From Parafrankia sp. EUN1f (lineage in GTDB: Bacteria > Actinomycetota > Actinomycetes > Frankiales > Frankiaceae), in NCBI RefSeq assembly GCF_000177675.1, contig NZ_ADGX01000088.1, positions 1 to 35,543 of the forward strand: a stretch of DNA of 35,543 bases. The letters run 5' to 3'. This document shows positions 6,255 through 34,104 of the stretch, piece after piece. The translations under genes and the position numbers were made by a program. Below the pieces are notes generated by a model. It had not been told where the DNA came from and did no database searches. It saw only the letters and a list, made by a program, of their open reading frames with translations. Every line of letters starts with the position of its first letter. Within the stretch, counting starts at the first letter, position 1.

Positions 6255-7609
6255 CTGTCCACCTCATACCAGGCCGGCGTGTTCATCAGTGACTGCCAGC
6301 GGCGGTAGAACGCCCGGCCGGCGGCATCGCTGTACAGCTCGCTGGTCTTCCCCGGGTAACGTCCGTCCTCGCGTTCGGACCCGAGACCCATCTGGTAGTT
6401 GAGCGGGACGCTGTTCGTGACGAACCCGCGGGAGATGGCCTGAACCTCGCTCCAGTTCTCCCCGTCGTCCGCCTCGAAGACCCCGCTGGGCCCGAAGGTG
6501 CGCAGGTTGTAAAGGCGCTGAGCCTCCTTGACCTCGTCCGGCATGGACCTGTCGACCAGGGTCCAGGCCCACACCTCCATCCGGTCCGGGCCCTTCGGGT
6601 GCCAGACCCGGACGCTGCCGTTGACCGGCAGGTAGGAGAAGTTGGGGAACACCGTGGCGTGCCCGTTGGTCATCGGACCCTCGACGCGTGCGTCACCGAG
6701 GCGCGCGCGAGCCGCCTCGTAGTCGAACCACTGATGCACAGCGAGGGCGTCGAAACGGTTCTTCGGATGAACCGGGAACCCGGCACCATGGCCGTTCGGG
6801 TCGACGTATTGGCGGCCTGCGCGGTGGACGATCTCGTCCCTGGGGCTCTTGCCGGCCGGTGCCAGGAGCATGAGAGCCGACGCGTGGCTCATGTTGACGT
6901 GGTACCAGTCGGTCGCGAACTGTTCGGCCGACAGCTTCCAGTTGCCTTCCAGAACCCACTTGTGGACGCCGCCCACCACCTCGGTGCCGGCGCCGTCGTG
7001 GTCGAGCATCGCGTCCATGTACCAGGCCATGCCACCCAGCGCCTCGCGCAACGACGGCGCCCGCGGGTTCCACGTGCCGAAGATCAGACCGCGGTGGTTC
7101 TCGACCCTGGGCACCTCGACCAGACCCCAGTCGGCGGTATCGAAGCGGTCCGGATAGCCCTCCCTGTTCGGAACGCTGACGAGCCGGCCTTCGAGGTCGT
7201 ACGCCCAGCCGTGGTAAGTGCAGGTGAAGTTGCGGGTCGTGCCGGCATCGGCGCGGCATACCCGGGCGCCCCGGTGGCGGCAGGAGTTCAGGTAGGCGCG
7301 GACCGCGCGGCTCTTGTCCATGGTGACGATGACCGGGTCCTCACCCATGTAGGTGGTGAAGAAGTCGCCGGGCCTGCGGAACTGGTCGGTGTGGGCGAGG
7401 AAGAGCCAGCTGGGCGCGAAGACCCGGCGCAGTTCCTGCTGGTAGATCTGGTGGTCGGTGAAGATCGCCCGGTCCAGCAGACCGCCGTCCGCGTCCACCA
7501 ACCCGGAGACATCGATGGTCGGAGTCAACTCGGACGGACGGTGCAGCGGGCCGGCCGGGGTCGCGGTAGGCCGACCCGCGCGGCCGGCCAGCTCAGGGGT
7601 CGACGTCAT
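6251..7609 (-). CDS. Rieske ring-hydroxylating dioxygenase alpha subunit
   Basis: A 452-residue large oxygenase subunit. The N-terminal Rieske domain has Cys110-x-His112 and Cys130-x2-His133 (CRH and CTYH). The catalytic domain has the mononuclear iron motif Asp234-x2-His237-x4-His242 in TDWYHVNMSH, and a later acidic DDGENW typical of the region that supplies the third iron ligand. The alpha subunit binds the aromatic substrate and inserts both atoms of O2 to give a cis-dihydrodiol. The HcaE/BphA-like length and the neighbouring BphB-type and MhpB/MhpC-type genes favour phenylpropionate-like or biphenyl-like acids, but specificity cannot be read from sequence alone. The ATG at 7609 follows a strong GGGAGAGGAG. 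It is the first gene of the leftward operon. Confidence 0.95.
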   Translation of the reverse strand: MTSTPELAGRAGRPTATPAGPLHRPSELTPTIDVSGLVDADGGLLDRAIFTDHQIYQQELRRVFAPSWLFLAHTDQFRRPGDFFTTYMGEDPVIVTMDKSRAVRAYLNSCRHRGARVCRADAGTTRNFTCTYHGWAYDLEGRLVSVPNREGYPDRFDTADWGLVEVPRVENHRGLIFGTWNPRAPSLREALGGMAWYMDAMLDHDGAGTEVVGGVHKWVLEGNWKLSAEQFATDWYHVNMSHASALMLLAPAGKSPRDEIVHRAGRQYVDPNGHGAGFPVHPKNRFDALAVHQWFDYEAARARLGDARVEGPMTNGHATVFPNFSYLPVNGSVRVWHPKGPDRMEVWAWTLVDRSMPDEVKEAQRLYNLRTFGPSGVFEADDGENWSEVQAISRGFVTNSVPLNYQMGLGSEREDGRYPGKTSELYSDAAGRAFYRRWQSLMNTPAWYEVDR

Positions 7610-27686: not shown

Positions 27687-27941
27687 TTAAGTAGTTGATC
27701 GAGACTCCGGTGGCCGAGGGCCGTGGCACCGCATGCCCGGACCCTCGGTTCCGACCAGCACCGCTCCCGTCGCCCCGGCCGTCTGCCCGCGGCCCGGCGC
27801 CCCGGCCAACTGAACGGGGGCGCCCGGCCGGCGGGCCCAGTACCACCACTTCGTTCCCGCCGGGATTGGCACGGTGAGCGCGTTCGGGTTGTTGTTGATC
27901 GCGTCGCACCAGTCGTGGCCGAAGGAGCCGACGGTGCTGCC
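27687..27941 (-). pseudogene. possible gene tail cut by the IS6 relic
   Basis: On the minus strand a frame abuts the IS6 relic at about 27941 and runs left. Its first part (WCDAINNNPNALTVPIPAG, then TKWWYWAR) looks protein-like, with Trp and Asn composition unlike a shadow frame. The later part turns Gly/Pro/Arg-rich and may be noise. It has no plausible start, so it would be the 3' remainder of a gene truncated by IS6 activity. I do not recognise a family. Confidence 0.25.
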
Positions 27942-28281
27942 CACCGACAAGGCCCCCGTCTACCCAAGGCTCCTCGACGAGCTGCTCCCCGAGGCCTGCC
28001 ACGTCGACGCCGCGCGGGAGAACAACCGGATCGAAGCCGATCACGGCCGCCTGAAAGCCCGGCTCCGGCCCATGCGCGGCCTGAAACGCCTGCGGTCCGC
28101 CCAGACGATCAGCGCAGGTCATGCGCTCGTCCGGAACATCCGCCGCGGCGACTACGAACTCGCCATCGACACCGACCCGCACCTGCGGCTGGCAGCCGCG
28201 TTCACCGAGCTCACCCTCGCTATCTGATCACCCGCTCGGCAGGGTCAACCATGCCCTGCCATCCCCTAATGCAACAGACCC
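27941..28281 (+). mobile_element. truncated IS6-family element (3' part)
   Basis: From about 27942 the DNA matches the 3' third of the intact IS6 transposase at 31487-32197. It codes for TDKAPVYPRLLDELLPEA, then ENNRIEADHGRLKARLRP with the third catalytic Glu, and ends at a TGA near 28225. The N-terminal half, including both catalytic Asp residues, is missing, so it is inactive. The element end is still visible: ATGCAACAGACCC at 28269-28281 is the reverse of the GGGTCTGTTGCAT that opens the intact copy. The left junction is abrupt, as expected from IS6-type adjacent deletions. Confidence 0.85.
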
Positions 28282-29352: not shown

Positions 29353-29859
29353 ATGATCCAGAAGCACGACCCGCGAAGCCCCGGCGCCGACCTGATCCCG
29401 GGGGATGTGGATCTGTTCGTCGTTCTCGCGGAGGACGACCGCGTCGCCGTCATCCTTGACCGGGTGCGGGCACAGCCAGCCGGCTTCGAGTTTGATCTGC
29501 TAATGGTTGGACAAGTGCAATCATTAGTGCGTGTTATGCATCCAGGAGCCGTGGAGGGCTCGGCCGGGTTGCGGGCTTTCGCCGCGTCTGCGTTGGGCGA
29601 AGAGCCGCCCGTGCTCGACTGCGGCGTGCAGTTTGCCGGTAAGGGTCCCGGCCCGGTCGAAGCCAGACTTCACATGAAGTCTGGCTTCTCACGTGACGGC
29701 GAGACGGACGCGTCTTTCTGGGTGCGGCCCCTGCCGCCTGTTGGCGACGTGATCTTCACGGTCACCGTCGGTGATCTGACTGGCTCGGCGGTCATCTCCG
29801 GCAACGATCTGCGGTCCGCAGCAACGCGGGCCAGGCGTCTCGGCGCGTCCGGCCGATGA
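29353..29859 (+). CDS. hypothetical protein, paralogue of the product at 30682-31191
   Basis: A 168-residue soluble-looking protein that I do not recognise. It aligns with the product encoded at 30682-31191: an N-terminal IPGDVDLFVVLAE matches IPGKMRCYTVLAE, and the C-terminal PLPPVGDVIFTVTVGDLTGS and DLRSAATRARR match PLPDVGNALIRVSVAGLSGE and ELRAAAARARP. The middle is divergent. No signal peptide or membrane segment is visible. I chose the ATG at 29353 because homology begins soon after; no strong ribosome site precedes it. The shared C-terminal pattern (hydrophobic beta strand, then an Ala/Arg helix) occurs in many small actinobacterial proteins of unknown role. Confidence 0.65.
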   Translation: MIQKHDPRSPGADLIPGDVDLFVVLAEDDRVAVILDRVRAQPAGFEFDLLMVGQVQSLVRVMHPGAVEGSAGLRAFAASALGEEPPVLDCGVQFAGKGPGPVEARLHMKSGFSRDGETDASFWVRPLPPVGDVIFTVTVGDLTGSAVISGNDLRSAATRARRLGASGR

Positions 29860-30096
29860 CAGACTGTATGCCCCACACAGAATCCGCCACCACGCGGCGT
29901 TCTGTAACTATCTGCGCATCAGGTCACGCAGCCATGCTATGGGTCAAACTCTATACGGATCACTAGGCCCATACAAGAGCCTTTCGGCCCTAGGAGGACG
30001 AGATGTGAACGCTTTAGGCTTTGCTATACCGACTACAGGCGGTGTCAATGCGATGGATATGATCTATGCATCCGTCCATCAGGCACGGAGGATAAC

Positions 30097-30633
30097 ATGA
30101 ATGGAATGGGGAACACGCCGAGACGAGCCATGACGACGATCGGCGCCTGCGGCGCGGCGGTCGGACTGACAATCGCGGGCACAGCGCCCGCGCAGGCCGC
30201 AGAGTCGCCGGGCCTCTCTTCCCCCTCGGGACCGGGCGCCACCTATTATGGACCGAGCGGGACAGCCGGTTCAGGCGCGGCGGCTGCGGACTCTGGATGG
30301 GCCTGCACCATTTATCCGGAGAACCCGACCCGTCCCTTCTCTGACCTCCTCGTGGCTAGCGGGAATCAGTTCTGTTCAGGTGACCTCAGCGGTCAGACGC
30401 TAACGGTCTACCTGAAGAACTGGGACACCACCAACGAAAGATGGGTGCGAATCACCGGGGGCACCCATAGGTCCGGCGGCCTCGGCATGCTCTCGGCGAG
30501 CGACGAGTATTTCTGCGAACCCACTACCACCGGTAAGGACTACCGTAGCGAGGTTGTCGGAACAGGCGTCGGGCCGTCCGGCGCCAGCACGGCCACCGCC
30601 TACTCCAACACAGTCACGTTCAACTGTGCCTGA
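30097..30633 (+). CDS. small secreted protein with four cysteines
   Basis: A 178-residue protein with a signal peptide: MNGMGNTPRRAM, a hydrophobic stretch (IGACGAAVGLTIAG), then APAQA-A at about residues 30-35. The mature part starts with a Gly/Ser/Pro-rich linker and then a compact domain holding four cysteines (in WACTIYP, NQFCSGD, YFCEPTT and at the end FNCA), which could form two disulfides outside the cell. The ATG at 30097 follows GGAGG at 5 nt, the best ribosome site in this region. I do not recognise a family. It is flanked by two paralogous hypothetical genes on the same strand, which suggests, but does not prove, a shared function. Confidence 0.75.
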   Translation: MNGMGNTPRRAMTTIGACGAAVGLTIAGTAPAQAAESPGLSSPSGPGATYYGPSGTAGSGAAAADSGWACTIYPENPTRPFSDLLVASGNQFCSGDLSGQTLTVYLKNWDTTNERWVRITGGTHRSGGLGMLSASDEYFCEPTTTGKDYRSEVVGTGVGPSGASTATAYSNTVTFNCA

Positions 30634-30681
30634 TCGATTTTTCCTGGCTTCTTCGCCGAGCGAGTCGACAGCCCTCTTCCG

Positions 30682-31191
30682 ATGAACGCCGTGGAGCGGG
30701 AGCCCGCCGCCGACCAGGTGCCGATTCCGGGTAAAATGCGGTGTTACACGGTGCTCGCCGAGAGTCCCTCCACCGCCGTCGTTCTGGTTGGATTGTGGGT
30801 ATGGCCGCAGAGAATTCTTTTTCGAATGCTCCTGTTCGGCGTCGAGGCGGTCTTCCCCTCGACGCCAAACGAGATCGAGCGGCTACGCCGAGCGGGAGAA
30901 CTCCAGGAACAGATGTATAGCCTGCGGACCGATCCAAAACTGATCGTCGAACCGCTCGCATGCGACGTCACCATGCCCCGGAGCACGGTCCGGGAAGCGC
31001 GGGTATGGTCACCCGGCTGGGGCACGACCTACGGTCGTCTACAGGCCGATTACGAGGCGAGCCCCTTGCCCGATGTGGGGAACGCACTCATCCGCGTCAG
31101 CGTCGCCGGTCTGAGCGGCGAGGTCGAGCTCAGCGGTGACGAACTGCGCGCCGCAGCCGCCCGCGCGCGACCACCAAGATCCCCACGCTGA
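30682..31191 (+). CDS. hypothetical protein, paralogue of the product at 29353-29859
   Basis: A 169-residue protein, 48 nt after the secreted protein gene and thus probably in the same transcript. It shares the N-terminal VLAE strand and the C-terminal PLPDVG strand-helix pattern with the 29353 product. It has a more hydrophobic segment in the N-terminal third (LVGLWVWPQRILFRMLLFG), but this also aligns with the paralogue and is probably a beta region rather than a membrane helix. Family and function unknown. The ATG at 30682 lacks a strong ribosome site and could be translated by coupling. Confidence 0.65.
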   Translation: MNAVEREPAADQVPIPGKMRCYTVLAESPSTAVVLVGLWVWPQRILFRMLLFGVEAVFPSTPNEIERLRRAGELQEQMYSLRTDPKLIVEPLACDVTMPRSTVREARVWSPGWGTTYGRLQADYEASPLPDVGNALIRVSVAGLSGEVELSGDELRAAAARARPPRSPR

Positions 31192-31426: not shown

Positions 31427-32252
31427 GGGTCTGTTGCATCGGCGAAGTCGGCCATCGCGGGGCGTCCGAGCGGTCATGATCGGCTGATGCGTCGACGCCG
31501 TGTCCGTCCACTGGCTCCGGTGTCGGAGTTCGCCGGGTTCCGGTTCCCACCCGAGGTGATCGTGCTGGCGGTGCGGTGGTACCTGCGGTACGCGCTGTCC
31601 TACCGGGACGTCGAGGAGCTCCTCGCTGAACGCGGCATCGAGGTCGACCACGTCACGATCTACCGGTGGGTGCGGCGCTTCACGCCCTTGCTCGTGGACG
31701 CGGCCCGGCCCTGCCGACACCAACCAGGCGACAGATGGTTCGTCGATGAGACGTACGTGAAGGTCTCTGGTCGGTGGACCTACGTGTACCGGGCGGTTGA
31801 CCAGCACGGGCAGGTCATCGACGTCCTCGCCAGCGAACGACGCGACCAGGCCGCCGCCCGTAGGTTCTTCGCCCACGCACTGTCCCACGGGCGCCGGCCG
31901 GTCGAGGTCACCACCGACAAGGCACCGGTCTATCGGAGAATCCTTGACGAGCTGCTCCCCGAGGCCTGCCACGTCGACGCCGCCCGGGAGAACAACCGGA
32001 TCGAAGCCGACCACGGCCGCCTGAAAGCCCGGCTACGGCCGATGCGCGGCCTGAAACGGCTGCGTTCGGTCCAGACCGTGAGCGCCGGACATGCCCTGGT
32101 GCGGAACATCCGCCGCGGCCACTACGAACTCGCCATCGACACGGACCCACACCTGCGGCTGGCAGCCGCGTTCACCGAGCTCGCCGCCGCCGTCTGACCG
32201 CCGATCATCGAGGCCGCTGGCATGCCCAGCTTCCCCGGAACGCAACAGCGCC
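31427..32252 (+). mobile_element. intact IS6-family insertion sequence
   Basis: An 826-bp element with one transposase gene. The left end at 31427 begins GGGTCTGTTGCATCGGC. The right end, ending at 32252, finishes CGCAACAGCGCC, the imperfect inverse of the left end. No 8-bp target duplication is seen: GCTCAAGT lies to the left and ATCAGGAC to the right. The right flank is itself a fragment of another IS6 copy, so this element inserted into, or recombined with, older IS DNA. Confidence 0.85.
31487..32197 (+). CDS. IS6-family transposase
   Basis: A 236-residue transposase at full family length. The N-terminal helix-turn-helix region includes RYALSYRDVEELLAERGI and TIYRWVRRF. The DDE catalytic residues are visible as Asp in WFVDETYVKV, Asp in YRAVDQHG and Glu in NRIEADHGRLK. 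The protein is about 90 percent identical by eye to the minus-strand copy at 33334-34044. The frame is intact from the ATG at 31487 to the TGA at 32197, so it may be active. IS6 transposases move by replicative cointegrate formation. Confidence 0.95.
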   Translation: MRRRRVRPLAPVSEFAGFRFPPEVIVLAVRWYLRYALSYRDVEELLAERGIEVDHVTIYRWVRRFTPLLVDAARPCRHQPGDRWFVDETYVKVSGRWTYVYRAVDQHGQVIDVLASERRDQAAARRFFAHALSHGRRPVEVTTDKAPVYRRILDELLPEACHVDAARENNRIEADHGRLKARLRPMRGLKRLRSVQTVSAGHALVRNIRRGHYELAIDTDPHLRLAAAFTELAAAV

Positions 32253-32306: not shown

Positions 32307-32462
32307 CCGGAAGATGTCCGAGATCACCGCCGAGAGCTTGACCAGGGCCAGATCGAGGACCTTCTCGACTCGGCCTCGACGCGTCACTCGATCATGACTG
32401 ATCAGGATCCGCGATGCCGGACTCCGCGGATGCAACACACCTCTGACGGTAGACTCTTGGCC

Positions 32463-32690
32463 ATGGCAGTCGTCAGCCGTATTACCGCCGATCCCGCGAT
32501 CATGGCGGGTGCGCCGGCGATTCGTGGTACCCGGATCACCGTGTCCGCGGTGCTGGGGCAGCTCGCGGCTGGCTCGACGGTCGAGGAACTGCTCGCAGAC
32601 TACCCGTCGCTCACCCGCGACGATGTGCTCGCTGCTCTCGCGTTTGCCGCGGAGACGATGCCGCAAGAGCGTCCGTTCATCGCCGCATGA
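32463..32690 (+). CDS. DUF433 antitoxin-like protein
   Basis: A 75-residue protein of the DUF433 type. GAPAIRGTRITVSAVLGQLAAG and VEELLADYPSLTRDDVLAALAFA form the winged-helix-like DNA-binding core of this family, which is thought to act as the antitoxin and autorepressor in pairs with DUF5615 proteins. The ATG at 32463 fits the family start; an in-frame longer version from 32394 would add residues without homology. Its stop overlaps the DUF5615 start as ATGA. The pair lies between two inverted IS6 copies. Confidence 0.88.
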   Translation: MAVVSRITADPAIMAGAPAIRGTRITVSAVLGQLAAGSTVEELLADYPSLTRDDVLAALAFAAETMPQERPFIAA

Positions 32691-33055
32691 AGTTCCTTGT
32701 CGACGAGAACCTCTCACCGCGGGTCGCCGAACTGCTGCGCGACAAGGGTATCGACACGACGCACGTCCTCGAGCACGGGCTTGGCGGTTCTCCGGATACC
32801 AAGGTCAGCGCGTTCGCCGTCACCGAGAGACGGTCGATCATCTCGGCCGACAGCGACTTCACCACCCTGCTCGCGCTCAGTCGCGGCACTGCTCCCTCGC
32901 TCGTCCTGCTCCGGTCCGGCGACCAGCTCAAGCCCGACGCGCAAGCCGCCTTGTTGCTGGCGAACCTGCCCGCGCTGGAAGCCGACCTCGAACAGGGCGT
33001 CGTGGTATCGCTCAGCACGACCCACGTGCGGGTCCGTCGGCTCCCGCTTCGCTGA
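32687..33055 (+). CDS. DUF5615 PIN-like toxin candidate
   Basis: A 122-residue DUF5615 (PIN-like) protein. The N-terminal FLVDENLSPRVAELL carries the conserved acidic pair, and SADSDFTTL carries further acidic residues expected in a PIN-type metal site. ALSRGTAPSLVLLRSGD and the C-terminal VVVSLSTTHVRVRRLP match the family layout. PIN-type toxins cut RNA; for DUF5615 proteins this activity is inferred from fold and pairing with DUF433. It is coupled to the upstream gene by a 4-bp overlap and appears full length. Confidence 0.88.
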   Translation: MKFLVDENLSPRVAELLRDKGIDTTHVLEHGLGGSPDTKVSAFAVTERRSIISADSDFTTLLALSRGTAPSLVLLRSGDQLKPDAQAALLLANLPALEADLEQGVVVSLSTTHVRVRRLPLR

Positions 33056-33277: not shown

Positions 33278-34104
33278 GGCGGTGTCGCGTTCGGCGAAGG
33301 CGGGGCATGCCCAGTGGCCGGGGCGTCTGCCGGTCAGACGGTTGCGGCGAGTTCGGTGAAGGCGGCTGCCAACCTCAGTCGCGGACTGCTGTCGATCCCG
33401 AGTTCGTAGTGGCCGCGGCGGATGTTCTGCACCAAGGCGTGTCCGGCACTGACGGTCTGGACCGAGCGGAGGCGTTTCAGCCCGCGCATCGGCCGCAGCC
33501 GTGCTTTCAACCGGCCGTGGTCCGCTTCGATCCGGTTGTTCTCCCGAGCGGCATCGACATGACAGGCCTCGGGGAGGAGCTCGTCGAGGATCCTCGGGTA
33601 GACGGGGGCCTTGTCGGTCGTGACCTCGACCGGCCGACGGCCATGGGACAGCGCCCGGGCGAAGAAGCGCCGGGCGGCGGCCTGGTCGCGGCGGGTGCTG
33701 GCCAGGACGTCGATGACCTGACCATGCTGGTCAACAGCCCGGTACACGTAGGTCCACCGGCCGGAGACCCTCACGTAGGTCTCATCGACAAACCACCTCC
33801 CGCCAGGCCGGTGCCGACACGGCCGGGCCGCGTCGACCAGCAGCGGGGTGAACCGGCGGACCCATCGGTAGACGGTCACGTGATCGACCTTGAGGCCGCG
33901 TTCGGCGAGGAGCTCCTCCACATCGCGGTACGACAGGGCGAACCTCAGGTACCAGCGCACCGCCAGAACGATCACCTCGGGCGGGAACCGGAAGCCGGAG
34001 AACTCCGATGCTGGAGCCGGTGGGTGGGCGCGACGTCGACGCATCGCTTGATCATGACCGTTCGGTAGCCGCAGGACAGCGGACTCTGCCGATGCAACAG
34101 CGCC
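33278..34104 (-). mobile_element. second IS6-family insertion sequence, inverted
   Basis: An 827-bp element in opposite orientation to the copy at 31427. The transposase-proximal end at 34104 reads inward GGCGCTGTTGCATCGGC. The distal end at 33278 begins GGCGGTGTCGCGTTCGGC and matches the inverse of the other copy's right end at 27 of 34 positions, so it has drifted. Flanks (CTGAAAAC to the left, CTGCGCGA to the right) show no convincing target duplication. Confidence 0.82.
33334..34044 (-). CDS. IS6-family transposase
   Basis: A 236-residue, full-length IS6 transposase with the same motifs as the plus-strand copy: WFVDETYVRV, YRAVDQHG and NRIEADHGRLK hold the DDE triad. It starts at the ATG at 34044. 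Differences from the other copy are scattered substitutions (for example LKVDHVTVYRW for IEVDHVTIYRW), so they are related but not a recent duplication. The frame is intact. Confidence 0.95.
   Translation of the reverse strand: MRRRRAHPPAPASEFSGFRFPPEVIVLAVRWYLRFALSYRDVEELLAERGLKVDHVTVYRWVRRFTPLLVDAARPCRHRPGGRWFVDETYVRVSGRWTYVYRAVDQHGQVIDVLASTRRDQAAARRFFARALSHGRRPVEVTTDKAPVYPRILDELLPEACHVDAARENNRIEADHGRLKARLRPMRGLKRLRSVQTVSAGHALVQNIRRGHYELGIDSSPRLRLAAAFTELAATV

What the first reader, a model, noticed from the sequence alone, without database searches (positions are those of the whole stretch)
29353..31191. Unrecognised trio: two paralogues flanking a secreted four-cysteine protein
Two ~168-residue paralogues with the same strand-helix C-terminus flank a small secreted protein with a strong ribosome site, all on one strand, in the accessory zone. 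Paralogue-effector-paralogue layouts are typical of immunity or chaperone partners of secreted effectors. No known family is recognised, so this is the best candidate for an undescribed system in the window.
Basis: partly seen in the sequence, partly recalled or inferred. Interest (0 to 1): 0.6.

Follow-up and report, generated by a model that had tools for sequence, protein, structure and literature searches.

The report
Secreted four-cysteine protein with two partners
Three neighbouring genes of a Frankia-type soil bacterium encode a small exported protein and two related partners of unknown function that recur together in other strains, sometimes beside enzymes that look able to activate and transfer fatty acids; it is a real, undescribed gene group whose job still has to be tested.

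Summary
The trio is real: P1 (29353-29859), secreted S (30097-30633), P2 (30682-31191); P1 and P2 are paralogues and no curated family matches. The genome belongs to Frankia's family. S occurs in 5 of 35 genomes of the order, and all 6 S genes or remnants lie beside P genes. In three Frankia species the order is S-P1-P2 with 4-base stop/start overlaps, so "paralogue-effector-paralogue" is not the conserved layout. Close P genes also occur without S (3 of 9 loci, two degraded), and P1/P2 are divergent members of a widespread unannotated actinobacterial family, usually single; this weakens the immunity reading. S is predicted as an Ig-like beta-sandwich with four conserved cysteines. Unexpectedly, S and distant four-cysteine secreted relatives sit beside an acyl-ligase / ACP-GNAT / SnoaL-like module: 18 pattern hits in 17 of 42 loci (two doubtful; pattern set after seeing five of them), against 0 in 40 arbitrary Frankiaceae stretches (800 kb). 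The window copy lacks the module and is flanked by IS240-type copies. Most likely the trio is the export-side part of such an acyl-transfer locus: S acts outside, P1/P2 handle it inside. Function is unproven; direct acylation of S is the boldest open reading.

The parts
29353..29859 (+). P1, 168-aa protein without signal peptide (by eye), first paralogue, predicted beta-sandwich
   Evidence: ORF; BLASTP to P2; AlphaFold2 model pLDDT 84.4, pTM 0.80; matched by the broad-family profile A4 at 3.4e-11
30087..30091 (+). GGAGG ribosome-binding site of S, 5 bases before the ATG
   Evidence: sequence
30097..30633 (+). S, 178-aa exported protein; signal peptide about residues 1-34, low-complexity linker, four-cysteine domain
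   Evidence: ORF; relatives; model of the mature part pLDDT 74.7 (linker below 50; the five models range from 42 to 75), pTM 0.69
30097..30198 (+). predicted signal peptide (cleavage placed by eye after PAQA; Sec or Tat not decided)
   Evidence: sequence, by eye; passes the home-made signal-like filter
30298..30633 (+). mature four-cysteine domain, Trp68 to the stop (Cys 70, 93, 140, 177), predicted Ig-like
30682..31191 (+). P2, 169-aa paralogue; starts 48 bases after the stop of S
   Evidence: ORF; closest relative is the second P gene of Frankia sp. R82, 44% identity
27874..28227 (+). 3' part of an IS240-type (DDE_Tnp_IS240) transposase, left of the trio
   Evidence: Pfam; 292-nt direct repeat, 88%, with the right-hand copy
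31487..32197 (+). IS240-type transposase ORF (236 aa), right of the trio
   Evidence: Pfam; repeats

Best explanation
The trio encodes one exported protein and two cytosolic partners. S is exported through its signal peptide and folds into an Ig-like beta-sandwich, probably with two disulfides. P1 and P2 are beta-sandwiches of an undescribed actinobacterial family. In the fuller Frankia locus they are encoded with overlaps behind S, downstream of a fatty-acyl ligase of the FAAL/FadD type, an ACP-GNAT fusion and a SnoaL-like protein. Proposed mechanism: the ligase activates an acyl acid and loads the ACP domain; the GNAT domain moves the acyl group to an amine; S is the extracellular component that binds, displays or delivers the product; P1/P2, probably as a pair, hold S or its precursor in the cytosol before export. 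Shown: the genes, paralogy, conserved cysteines, S-with-P linkage, gene overlaps, and linkage of S-type proteins to the module. Inferred: enzyme activities (from family resemblance, weak for ACP, GNAT and SnoaL taken singly), disulfides, export, every protein contact, the P role. In this genome the trio is detached from such a module and lies between IS240-type copies, so it would have to work with modules elsewhere in the genome or be a passenger.
For: Trio and paralogy. Linkage: 6 of 6 S genes or remnants beside P genes. S-P1-P2 with TTGA and ATGA overlaps in F. torreyi, F. tisae and F. gtarii. Order ACP-GNAT, ligase, SnoaL-like, S, P1, P2 in F. torreyi; the F. tisae and F. gtarii module contigs run into the start of S. 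In a second genus: P, S, ACP-GNAT, ligase on one strand (ACP-GNATs 48% identical; ligases 42%). Four-cysteine secreted ORFs: 18 hits in 17 of 42 ACP-GNAT loci, all on the ACP-GNAT strand, 0 in 32 other loci and 0 in 40 arbitrary 20-kb stretches of five Frankiaceae genomes; ACP-GNAT loci of those same five genomes give 5 hits in 7 loci, 90,507 bases. S against the FRAAL6541 type: hhalign score 27.1 on the mature part, above all 200 column shuffles (highest 20.3), four cysteines aligned. P family: hhalign 97.6%, E 3e-12. Second-position P genes form one clade (76/78).
Against: No ACP-GNAT or SnoaL-like gene was recognised beside the trio in the window. ACP-GNAT is common in the order (26 of 35 genomes); in 42 ACP-GNAT loci P genes were found only in L028 and L030 (the P genes of L180 and L181 lie on other contigs). 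An intact P1-P2 pair exists without S (R82), so P has some S-independent role. 25 of 42 ACP-GNAT loci gave no strict hit, two of them because S is cut by a contig end; a looser scan of 19 of these gave 3 hits against 8 in 32 control loci, no enrichment. The pattern was set after I had seen S and three FRAAL6541-type proteins, which supply 5 of the 18 hits; two hits look doubtful; 9 are orthologues of one protein. ACP, GNAT and SnoaL Pfam matches are all below the curated cut-offs. The best-scoring named profile of the ligase is a fatty acid-CoA ligase (also just below cut-off), not a FAAL. Fold matches are generic beta-sandwiches.
Confidence: 0.3

Rival explanations
1. S is the acylated substrate: the GNAT domain attaches a fatty acyl group from its fused ACP to S (or its precursor) before export, a protein counterpart of GNAT-lipidated ribosomal peptides.
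For: Same-strand linkage of diverse small secreted proteins to ACP-GNAT genes; the ligase's best solved relative is a fatty acyl-adenylate ligase (3pbk, E 1.6e-60); GNATs that lipidate ribosomal peptides are known (PMC13060382, passages).
Against: No lysine is invariant in S relatives; in six aligned sequences the invariant columns are G, A, C, P and one Ser. The mature N-terminus is created only on export. The GNAT's best solved relatives are acetyltransferases, several of them of spermidine or diamines.
Confidence: 0.15
2. Effector with immunity or chaperone partners: S is a secreted toxin-like effector and P1/P2 protect the producer or escort S.
For: S always with P, overlaps S-P1-P2, no signal peptide on P1/P2 (by eye), sporadic distribution, IS flanks.
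Against: No toxin or defence family matched; P1-P2 intact without S in R82; the broad P family is usually single and without S; S changes little among three close species (dN/dS 0.13-0.16, few differences).
Confidence: 0.12
3. Loose neighbours: P1/P2 carry out their own cytosolic task (as their solitary relatives do) and S is only co-transcribed; linkage reflects shared regulation.
For: P pair without S in R82; broad P profile in 37 of 393 genomes, 32 of them without an S match, some members in longer proteins with ankyrin-like repeats (by eye); no specific recurrent neighbour of the broad family.
Against: 6 of 6 S beside P, although gene order changed between loci; 4-base overlaps between S, P1 and P2.
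Confidence: 0.2
4. In this genome the trio is a mobile or decaying remnant: IS240-type copies moved S/P away from an acyl module, and it no longer works here.
For: IS240-type parts on both sides; degraded copies elsewhere: S remnant and shortened P2 on F. torreyi contig C85, frame-broken P2 on C94, fragments in G005 and G020; only marginal codon-model scores.
Against: All three window ORFs are intact, the four cysteines are kept, S keeps a strong ribosome site; window against R82: dN/dS 0.22 for P1 (dS saturated) and 0.44 for P2.
Confidence: 0.15

Closest known systems
Unannotated actinobacterial family of about 170-210 aa (alignment A4; core consensus around WLxPLPPPGPLT)
   Same: P1/P2 align over 157 columns at 97.6% probability, E 3e-12; same final strand-helix block; A4 profile finds window P1 at 3.4e-11.
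   Different: P1/P2 and close relatives form a separate clade against five broad members (100/99), come as a pair and are tied to S; of 30 loci read around broad members, 26 had the member called as a gene, one each.
FRAAL6541 of Frankia alni ACN14a ('putative signal peptide', listed as specific to the core genome of Alnus-infective cluster Ia; PMC9956245, passages and table rows seen)
   Same: Secreted, about 141 aa, four cysteines in register with S, same place after ACP-GNAT, ligase and SnoaL-like genes.
   Different: About 18-21% identity to S; no P genes found beside it.
Mycobactin acylation set MbtM / MbtL / MbtK (FAAL, ACP, GNAT; recalled, apart from the MbtM profile match)
   Same: Same three kinds of domain: ligase matches the MbtM profile (E 3.4e-96, below its cut-off); ACP-like and GNAT-like domains.
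   Different: ACP and GNAT are fused here; a secreted protein sits next to the set; siderophore genes were not looked for.
GNAT-lipidated ribosomal peptides (lipolanthines, selidamides, nostolysamides; PMC13060382, passages)
   Same: A GNAT encoded beside a small gene-encoded product.
   Different: S is a protein with a signal peptide, not a short peptide with a leader; acylation of S is not shown.
PDB 3fbq and gamma-adaptin / GGA ear domains (fold only)
   Same: P1 model: Z 10.0 to 3fbq (rmsd 2.9, 110 aligned), 7.5 and below to ear domains.
   Different: No sequence match of the P profile in the PDB at E up to 10; a common fold that says nothing on function.

Membership tests
Broad actinobacterial P family (A4) | Collinear profile match including the PLPP..G and final strand-helix blocks | tested here: met
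   hhalign 97.6%, E 3e-12, 157 columns; A4 profile hits window P1 at 3.4e-11
Broad actinobacterial P family (A4) | Same beta-sandwich fold | not tested
   only P1 was modelled; no model of a broad member
S / FRAAL6541-type secreted four-cysteine proteins | Signal-like start plus four cysteines in similar spacing | tested here: met
   pattern scan; four cysteines aligned
S / FRAAL6541-type secreted four-cysteine proteins | Sequence homology beyond the cysteines | tested here: inconclusive
   hhalign probability only 31.8%, pairwise E 4.9e-4; score 27.1 above the highest of 100 shuffles with cysteines fixed (20.3) and of 100 free ones (18.1)
S / FRAAL6541-type secreted four-cysteine proteins | Next to ACP-GNAT, ligase and SnoaL-like genes | tested here: not met
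   met for the F. torreyi S (with SnoaL) and the G021 S (ACP-GNAT and ligase only; contig ends), not at the window locus; so S is filed only as a relative by sequence
Effector with immunity partner | Known toxin domain or catalytic motif in S | tested here: inconclusive
   no family match; an unknown toxin is not excluded
Effector with immunity partner | Partner found only with its effector | tested here: not met
   intact P pair without S in R82; broad P family without S
Effector with immunity partner | Harm by S, rescue by P1 or P2 | not testable with these tools
   needs expression tests
Acyl ligase / ACP / GNAT acyl-transfer cluster | The three domains encoded at the locus | tested here: not met
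   seen in F. torreyi and G021 (ACP and GNAT below Pfam cut-offs), not recognised beside the window trio; the window genome has ACP-GNAT matches on contigs C308, C391 (with a stop inside) and C374
Anti-phage defence systems (PADLOC) | Match to a defence model | tested here: not met
   no match for P1, S, P2 at E up to 1

The most novel reading that the evidence does not exclude
Frankiaceae carry an undescribed protein-lipidation or lipid-delivery cassette: an acyl ligase charges an ACP fused to a GNAT, which acylates (or hands its product to) a fast-diverging, exported, disulfide-stabilised beta-sandwich protein; P1/P2 are its dedicated cytosolic handlers. The window holds the exported protein and its handlers as a mobile unit.
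Probability: 0.2. Interest if true: 0.75.

Novelty: new variant of a known kind. Interest (0 to 1): 0.5.

Why it matters
If true, it would extend acyl-ACP-dependent GNAT acylation from siderophores and short ribosomal peptides to a family of exported proteins in relatives of nitrogen-fixing plant symbionts, and suggest a function for a published Alnus-cluster-specific secreted protein (FRAAL6541). Independently of that, P1/P2 give a widespread actinobacterial domain without a Pfam or NCBIfam match a first link to an exported partner.

Tried and rejected
Kelch hits of the S profile in the PDB rejected: a short motif multiplied by repeat proteins, the best of them named SAKe (designed, recalled). 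Weak S hits: of those outside the family I inspected 10, by eye out-of-frame or unrelated ORFs; one search listed many more at E up to 0.5 that I did not inspect. In one search four further genomes (G008, G009, G025, G030) and a second place in G004 matched at E 0.004-0.01 and were dropped: three cover only residues 16-76, the G008 one holds four stops, the G009 one lies in an antisense frame of a glyoxalase-like ORF. In one search G311 (E 2.1e-5, one stop) was dropped. In one search two of 14 genomes (G013, G183) matched the close-P profile weakly and are assigned to neither group; G001, G002, G018 and G055 are broad-family members. tblastn of S on the P loci without S gave only hits of E 3e-4 or weaker with composition correction off. 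Plasmids with S and P1 and viral contigs with S: nothing; the phage collection was not searched. Neighbours of the broad P family: the commonest recurring families were a short-chain dehydrogenase class (7 loci, the window and L028 included) and a phosphatase-like class (5 loci) (named by eye). Looser secreted-ORF scans: 3 hits in 19 ACP-GNAT loci against 8 in 32 controls, so not counted; one search had no control. VIA-align lists exclude no family by absence. The six weakest ACP-GNAT matches (E about 2e-6 to 6e-6) were not read.

Full report
Observation. P1 and P2 are 30% identical over 155 residues (E 5e-10). S carries a signal-peptide-like start, a GGAGG ribosome site and four cysteines in its mature part, with a fifth in the signal peptide. 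Pfam, NCBIfam, PHROGs and PADLOC recognise none of the three.

Distribution. Among 35 genomes of the order, P2 as query found P-type matches in 7 at E 0.01; the profile search added a fragment in G005. S matched 9 of 35 genomes at E 0.01; 5 are strong, and the 4 at E 0.005-0.01 are not accepted. Of 393 class genomes 6 matched the S profile (best 8 candidates per genome scored); one, G311, is weak and not counted. Each accepted S lies beside P genes: window, G004, G011, G012 contig C94 and G021, plus a C-terminal S remnant upstream of P1 on G012 contig C85. S of G004 and G011 is cut by the contig end. Of nine close-P loci three have no S: an intact P1-P2 pair in R82 (G009) and degraded pieces in G005 and G020.

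Layout. In F. torreyi, F. tisae and F. gtarii the order is S-P1-P2 with stop and start overlapping by four bases at both joints; P2 of F. torreyi C94 loses its frame near the end. In G021 it is P then S. Only the window has P1-S-P2, with 237 bases between P1 and S and 48 between S and P2. In a tree the second-position P genes form one clade (76/78; 72% of bootstrap trees) and the first-position ones need two changes, so the duplication is probably, not surely, old. dN/dS is below 1 in 3 of 3 S pairs among close species (0.13-0.16, on 3 to 10 differences) and in 11 of 12 P pairs (0.27-0.42; the twelfth, with 8 differences, 1.14); window S against F. torreyi S is 0.59.

What P is. The profile of close P genes aligns with a profile of a widespread actinobacterial family over 157 columns (97.6%, E 3e-12), and that family's profile finds window P1 at 3.4e-11. 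It matched 37 of 393 class genomes and 19 of 137 genera (best 7 candidates per genome scored, so a lower bound; the count includes genomes that have P1/P2-type genes). Some members lie in longer proteins with ankyrin-like repeats (by eye). In 30 loci read around broad members (L108-L137) the member was called as a gene in 26, one per locus, with no specific recurrent neighbour. P1 is predicted with good confidence (pLDDT 84.4, pTM 0.80) as a beta-sandwich with a C-terminal helix; best structural match 3fbq (Z 10.0, rmsd 2.9, 110 aligned), then adaptin-ear domains at Z 7.5 and below, a common fold.

What S is. The mature domain is predicted as an Ig-like beta-sandwich from a five-row alignment (best model pLDDT 74.7, linker below 50, pTM 0.69; the other four models average 42 to 72). 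Best match is the RsgI4 sensor domain (7cg8, Z 8.9, rmsd 2.8, 97 aligned), tied with unrelated sandwiches. Disulfides are inferred from conservation, not modelled.

The module. Upstream of S in F. torreyi lie, on the same strand, a carboxylesterase, an ACP-GNAT fusion, an AMP-dependent ligase and a SnoaL-like gene. AMP-binding is far above its Pfam cut-off; PP-binding, GNAT and SnoaL matches are each slightly below theirs, supported for ACP and GNAT by weak PDB sequence matches (2n57 E 0.0016, 3tcv E 1.2e-6). In F. tisae and F. gtarii the same set is on a contig that ends inside the start of S. In G021, of another genus, S is followed by an ACP-GNAT (48% identical) and a ligase (42%). The ligase's best solved relative is a fatty acyl-adenylate ligase (3pbk, E 1.6e-60); its best NCBIfam profile is named fatty acid-CoA ligase (554.6 bits, cut-off 572), followed by MbtM and FAAL profiles far below their cut-offs, so AMP- against CoA-ligase is open.

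How strong the link is. ACP-GNAT matches occur in 26 of 35 genomes. I read 42 loci around them and scanned for ORFs with a signal-like start and four cysteines in S-like spacing. The spacing was chosen after seeing S and three FRAAL6541-type proteins, which account for 5 hits. Result: 18 hits in 17 of 42 loci (479,315 bases), all on the ACP-GNAT strand; 0 in 32 other loci (438,688 bases, mostly not Frankiaceae). Added on checking: 0 in 40 arbitrary 20-kb stretches of five closed or nearly closed Frankiaceae genomes (800,000 bases, 3 raw cysteine-pattern matches without signal-like start), against 5 hits in the 7 ACP-GNAT loci read of those same genomes (90,507 bases). Two of the 18 (L188, and the first in L202) look doubtful; nine are orthologues of FRAAL6541 (60-94% identical in the eight aligned); the rest are diverse. 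FRAAL6541 is listed in PMC9956245 as a secreted protein specific to the core of Alnus-infective cluster Ia (passages and table rows); a search for that tag found only this paper. In the clade of 26 ACP-GNATs that holds those beside S (98 SH-aLRT, GNAT part only), 16 have such a protein, counting two whose S is cut by a contig end. S and the FRAAL6541 type align with all four cysteines; hhalign gives only 31.8%, but the score exceeds 200 of 200 shuffles. I take them as distant relatives with moderate confidence. Outside the family, a search of 128 class genomes gave one strong ACP-GNAT match (G124, E 8.5e-49), with partial ligase matches and secreted ORFs nearby but no four-cysteine pattern.

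The window copy. No such module was recognised beside it. IS240-type transposase parts lie on both sides (27874-28227 and 31487-32197, same orientation, 292 nt at 88%). The genome has ACP-GNAT matches on contigs C308, C391 (with a stop inside) and C374; the C308 one groups with the G021 gene that neighbours S (SH-aLRT 92), and the C391 one has its own four-cysteine secreted ORF. So the trio may be the displaced end of such a locus; this is inference.

Mechanism. Best supported: an exported protein with two cytosolic partners at the export end of an acyl-activation and N-acyl-transfer locus. Whether S is carrier, target or only a neighbour of the acyl chemistry is open. The lack of an invariant lysine speaks against a fixed lysine acceptor. 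GNATs that lipidate ribosomal peptides are known (PMC13060382, passages), which makes the acyl-substrate reading possible but not favoured. The toxin-immunity reading has no positive sign beyond linkage.

Literature. Searches on Frankia secretome, F. torreyi CpI1 with 'secreted', FAAL/GNAT/ACP/actinobacteria (0 papers), GNAT lipopeptides, FRAAL6541, goadvionin and selidamide showed, as far as listings go, no description of this trio or module. PMC10435860 was seen as passages, PMC2266912 only in a listing.

Noticed in passing
window 32394-33055 (+): Overlapping DUF433 (98 aa) and DUF5615/PIN-like (122 aa) genes, a likely toxin-antitoxin-like pair (recalled), between two inverted IS240-type copies.
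   Followed up: no
window 27874-28227, 31487-32197 (+), 33334-34044 (-): Three IS240-type transposase copies, one lacking its 5' part, bracket the trio and the DUF433/DUF5615 pair; inverted arms of 790 nt, 83% complementary.
   Followed up: partly
L184:6053-6475 (Frankia alni ACN14a): FRAAL6541, a published Alnus-cluster-specific secreted protein, sits directly after an ACP-GNAT / ligase / SnoaL-like set and has S-like cysteines.
   Followed up: partly
L190:9818-10291, L191:5585-5998, L198:2171-2632, L201:3531-4145, L213:7763-9104, L218:7112-8798: Other ACP-GNAT loci carry further small secreted-looking ORFs with 2 to 5 cysteines, some in tandem (no control run); not counted in the statistics.
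   Followed up: partly
L101 and L102 (also L104): Broad P-family domain at the N-terminus of longer proteins; in L101 and L102 followed by ankyrin-like repeats (by eye).
   Followed up: no
L026 / L027 / L180 / L181: The F. gtarii and F. tisae assemblies break near the start of S, by its repeat-rich linker, whose short repeat differs in copy number from F. torreyi.
   Followed up: partly
window 6731-6813: tRNA-Pro (cgg), the only tRNA found in the window.
   Followed up: no
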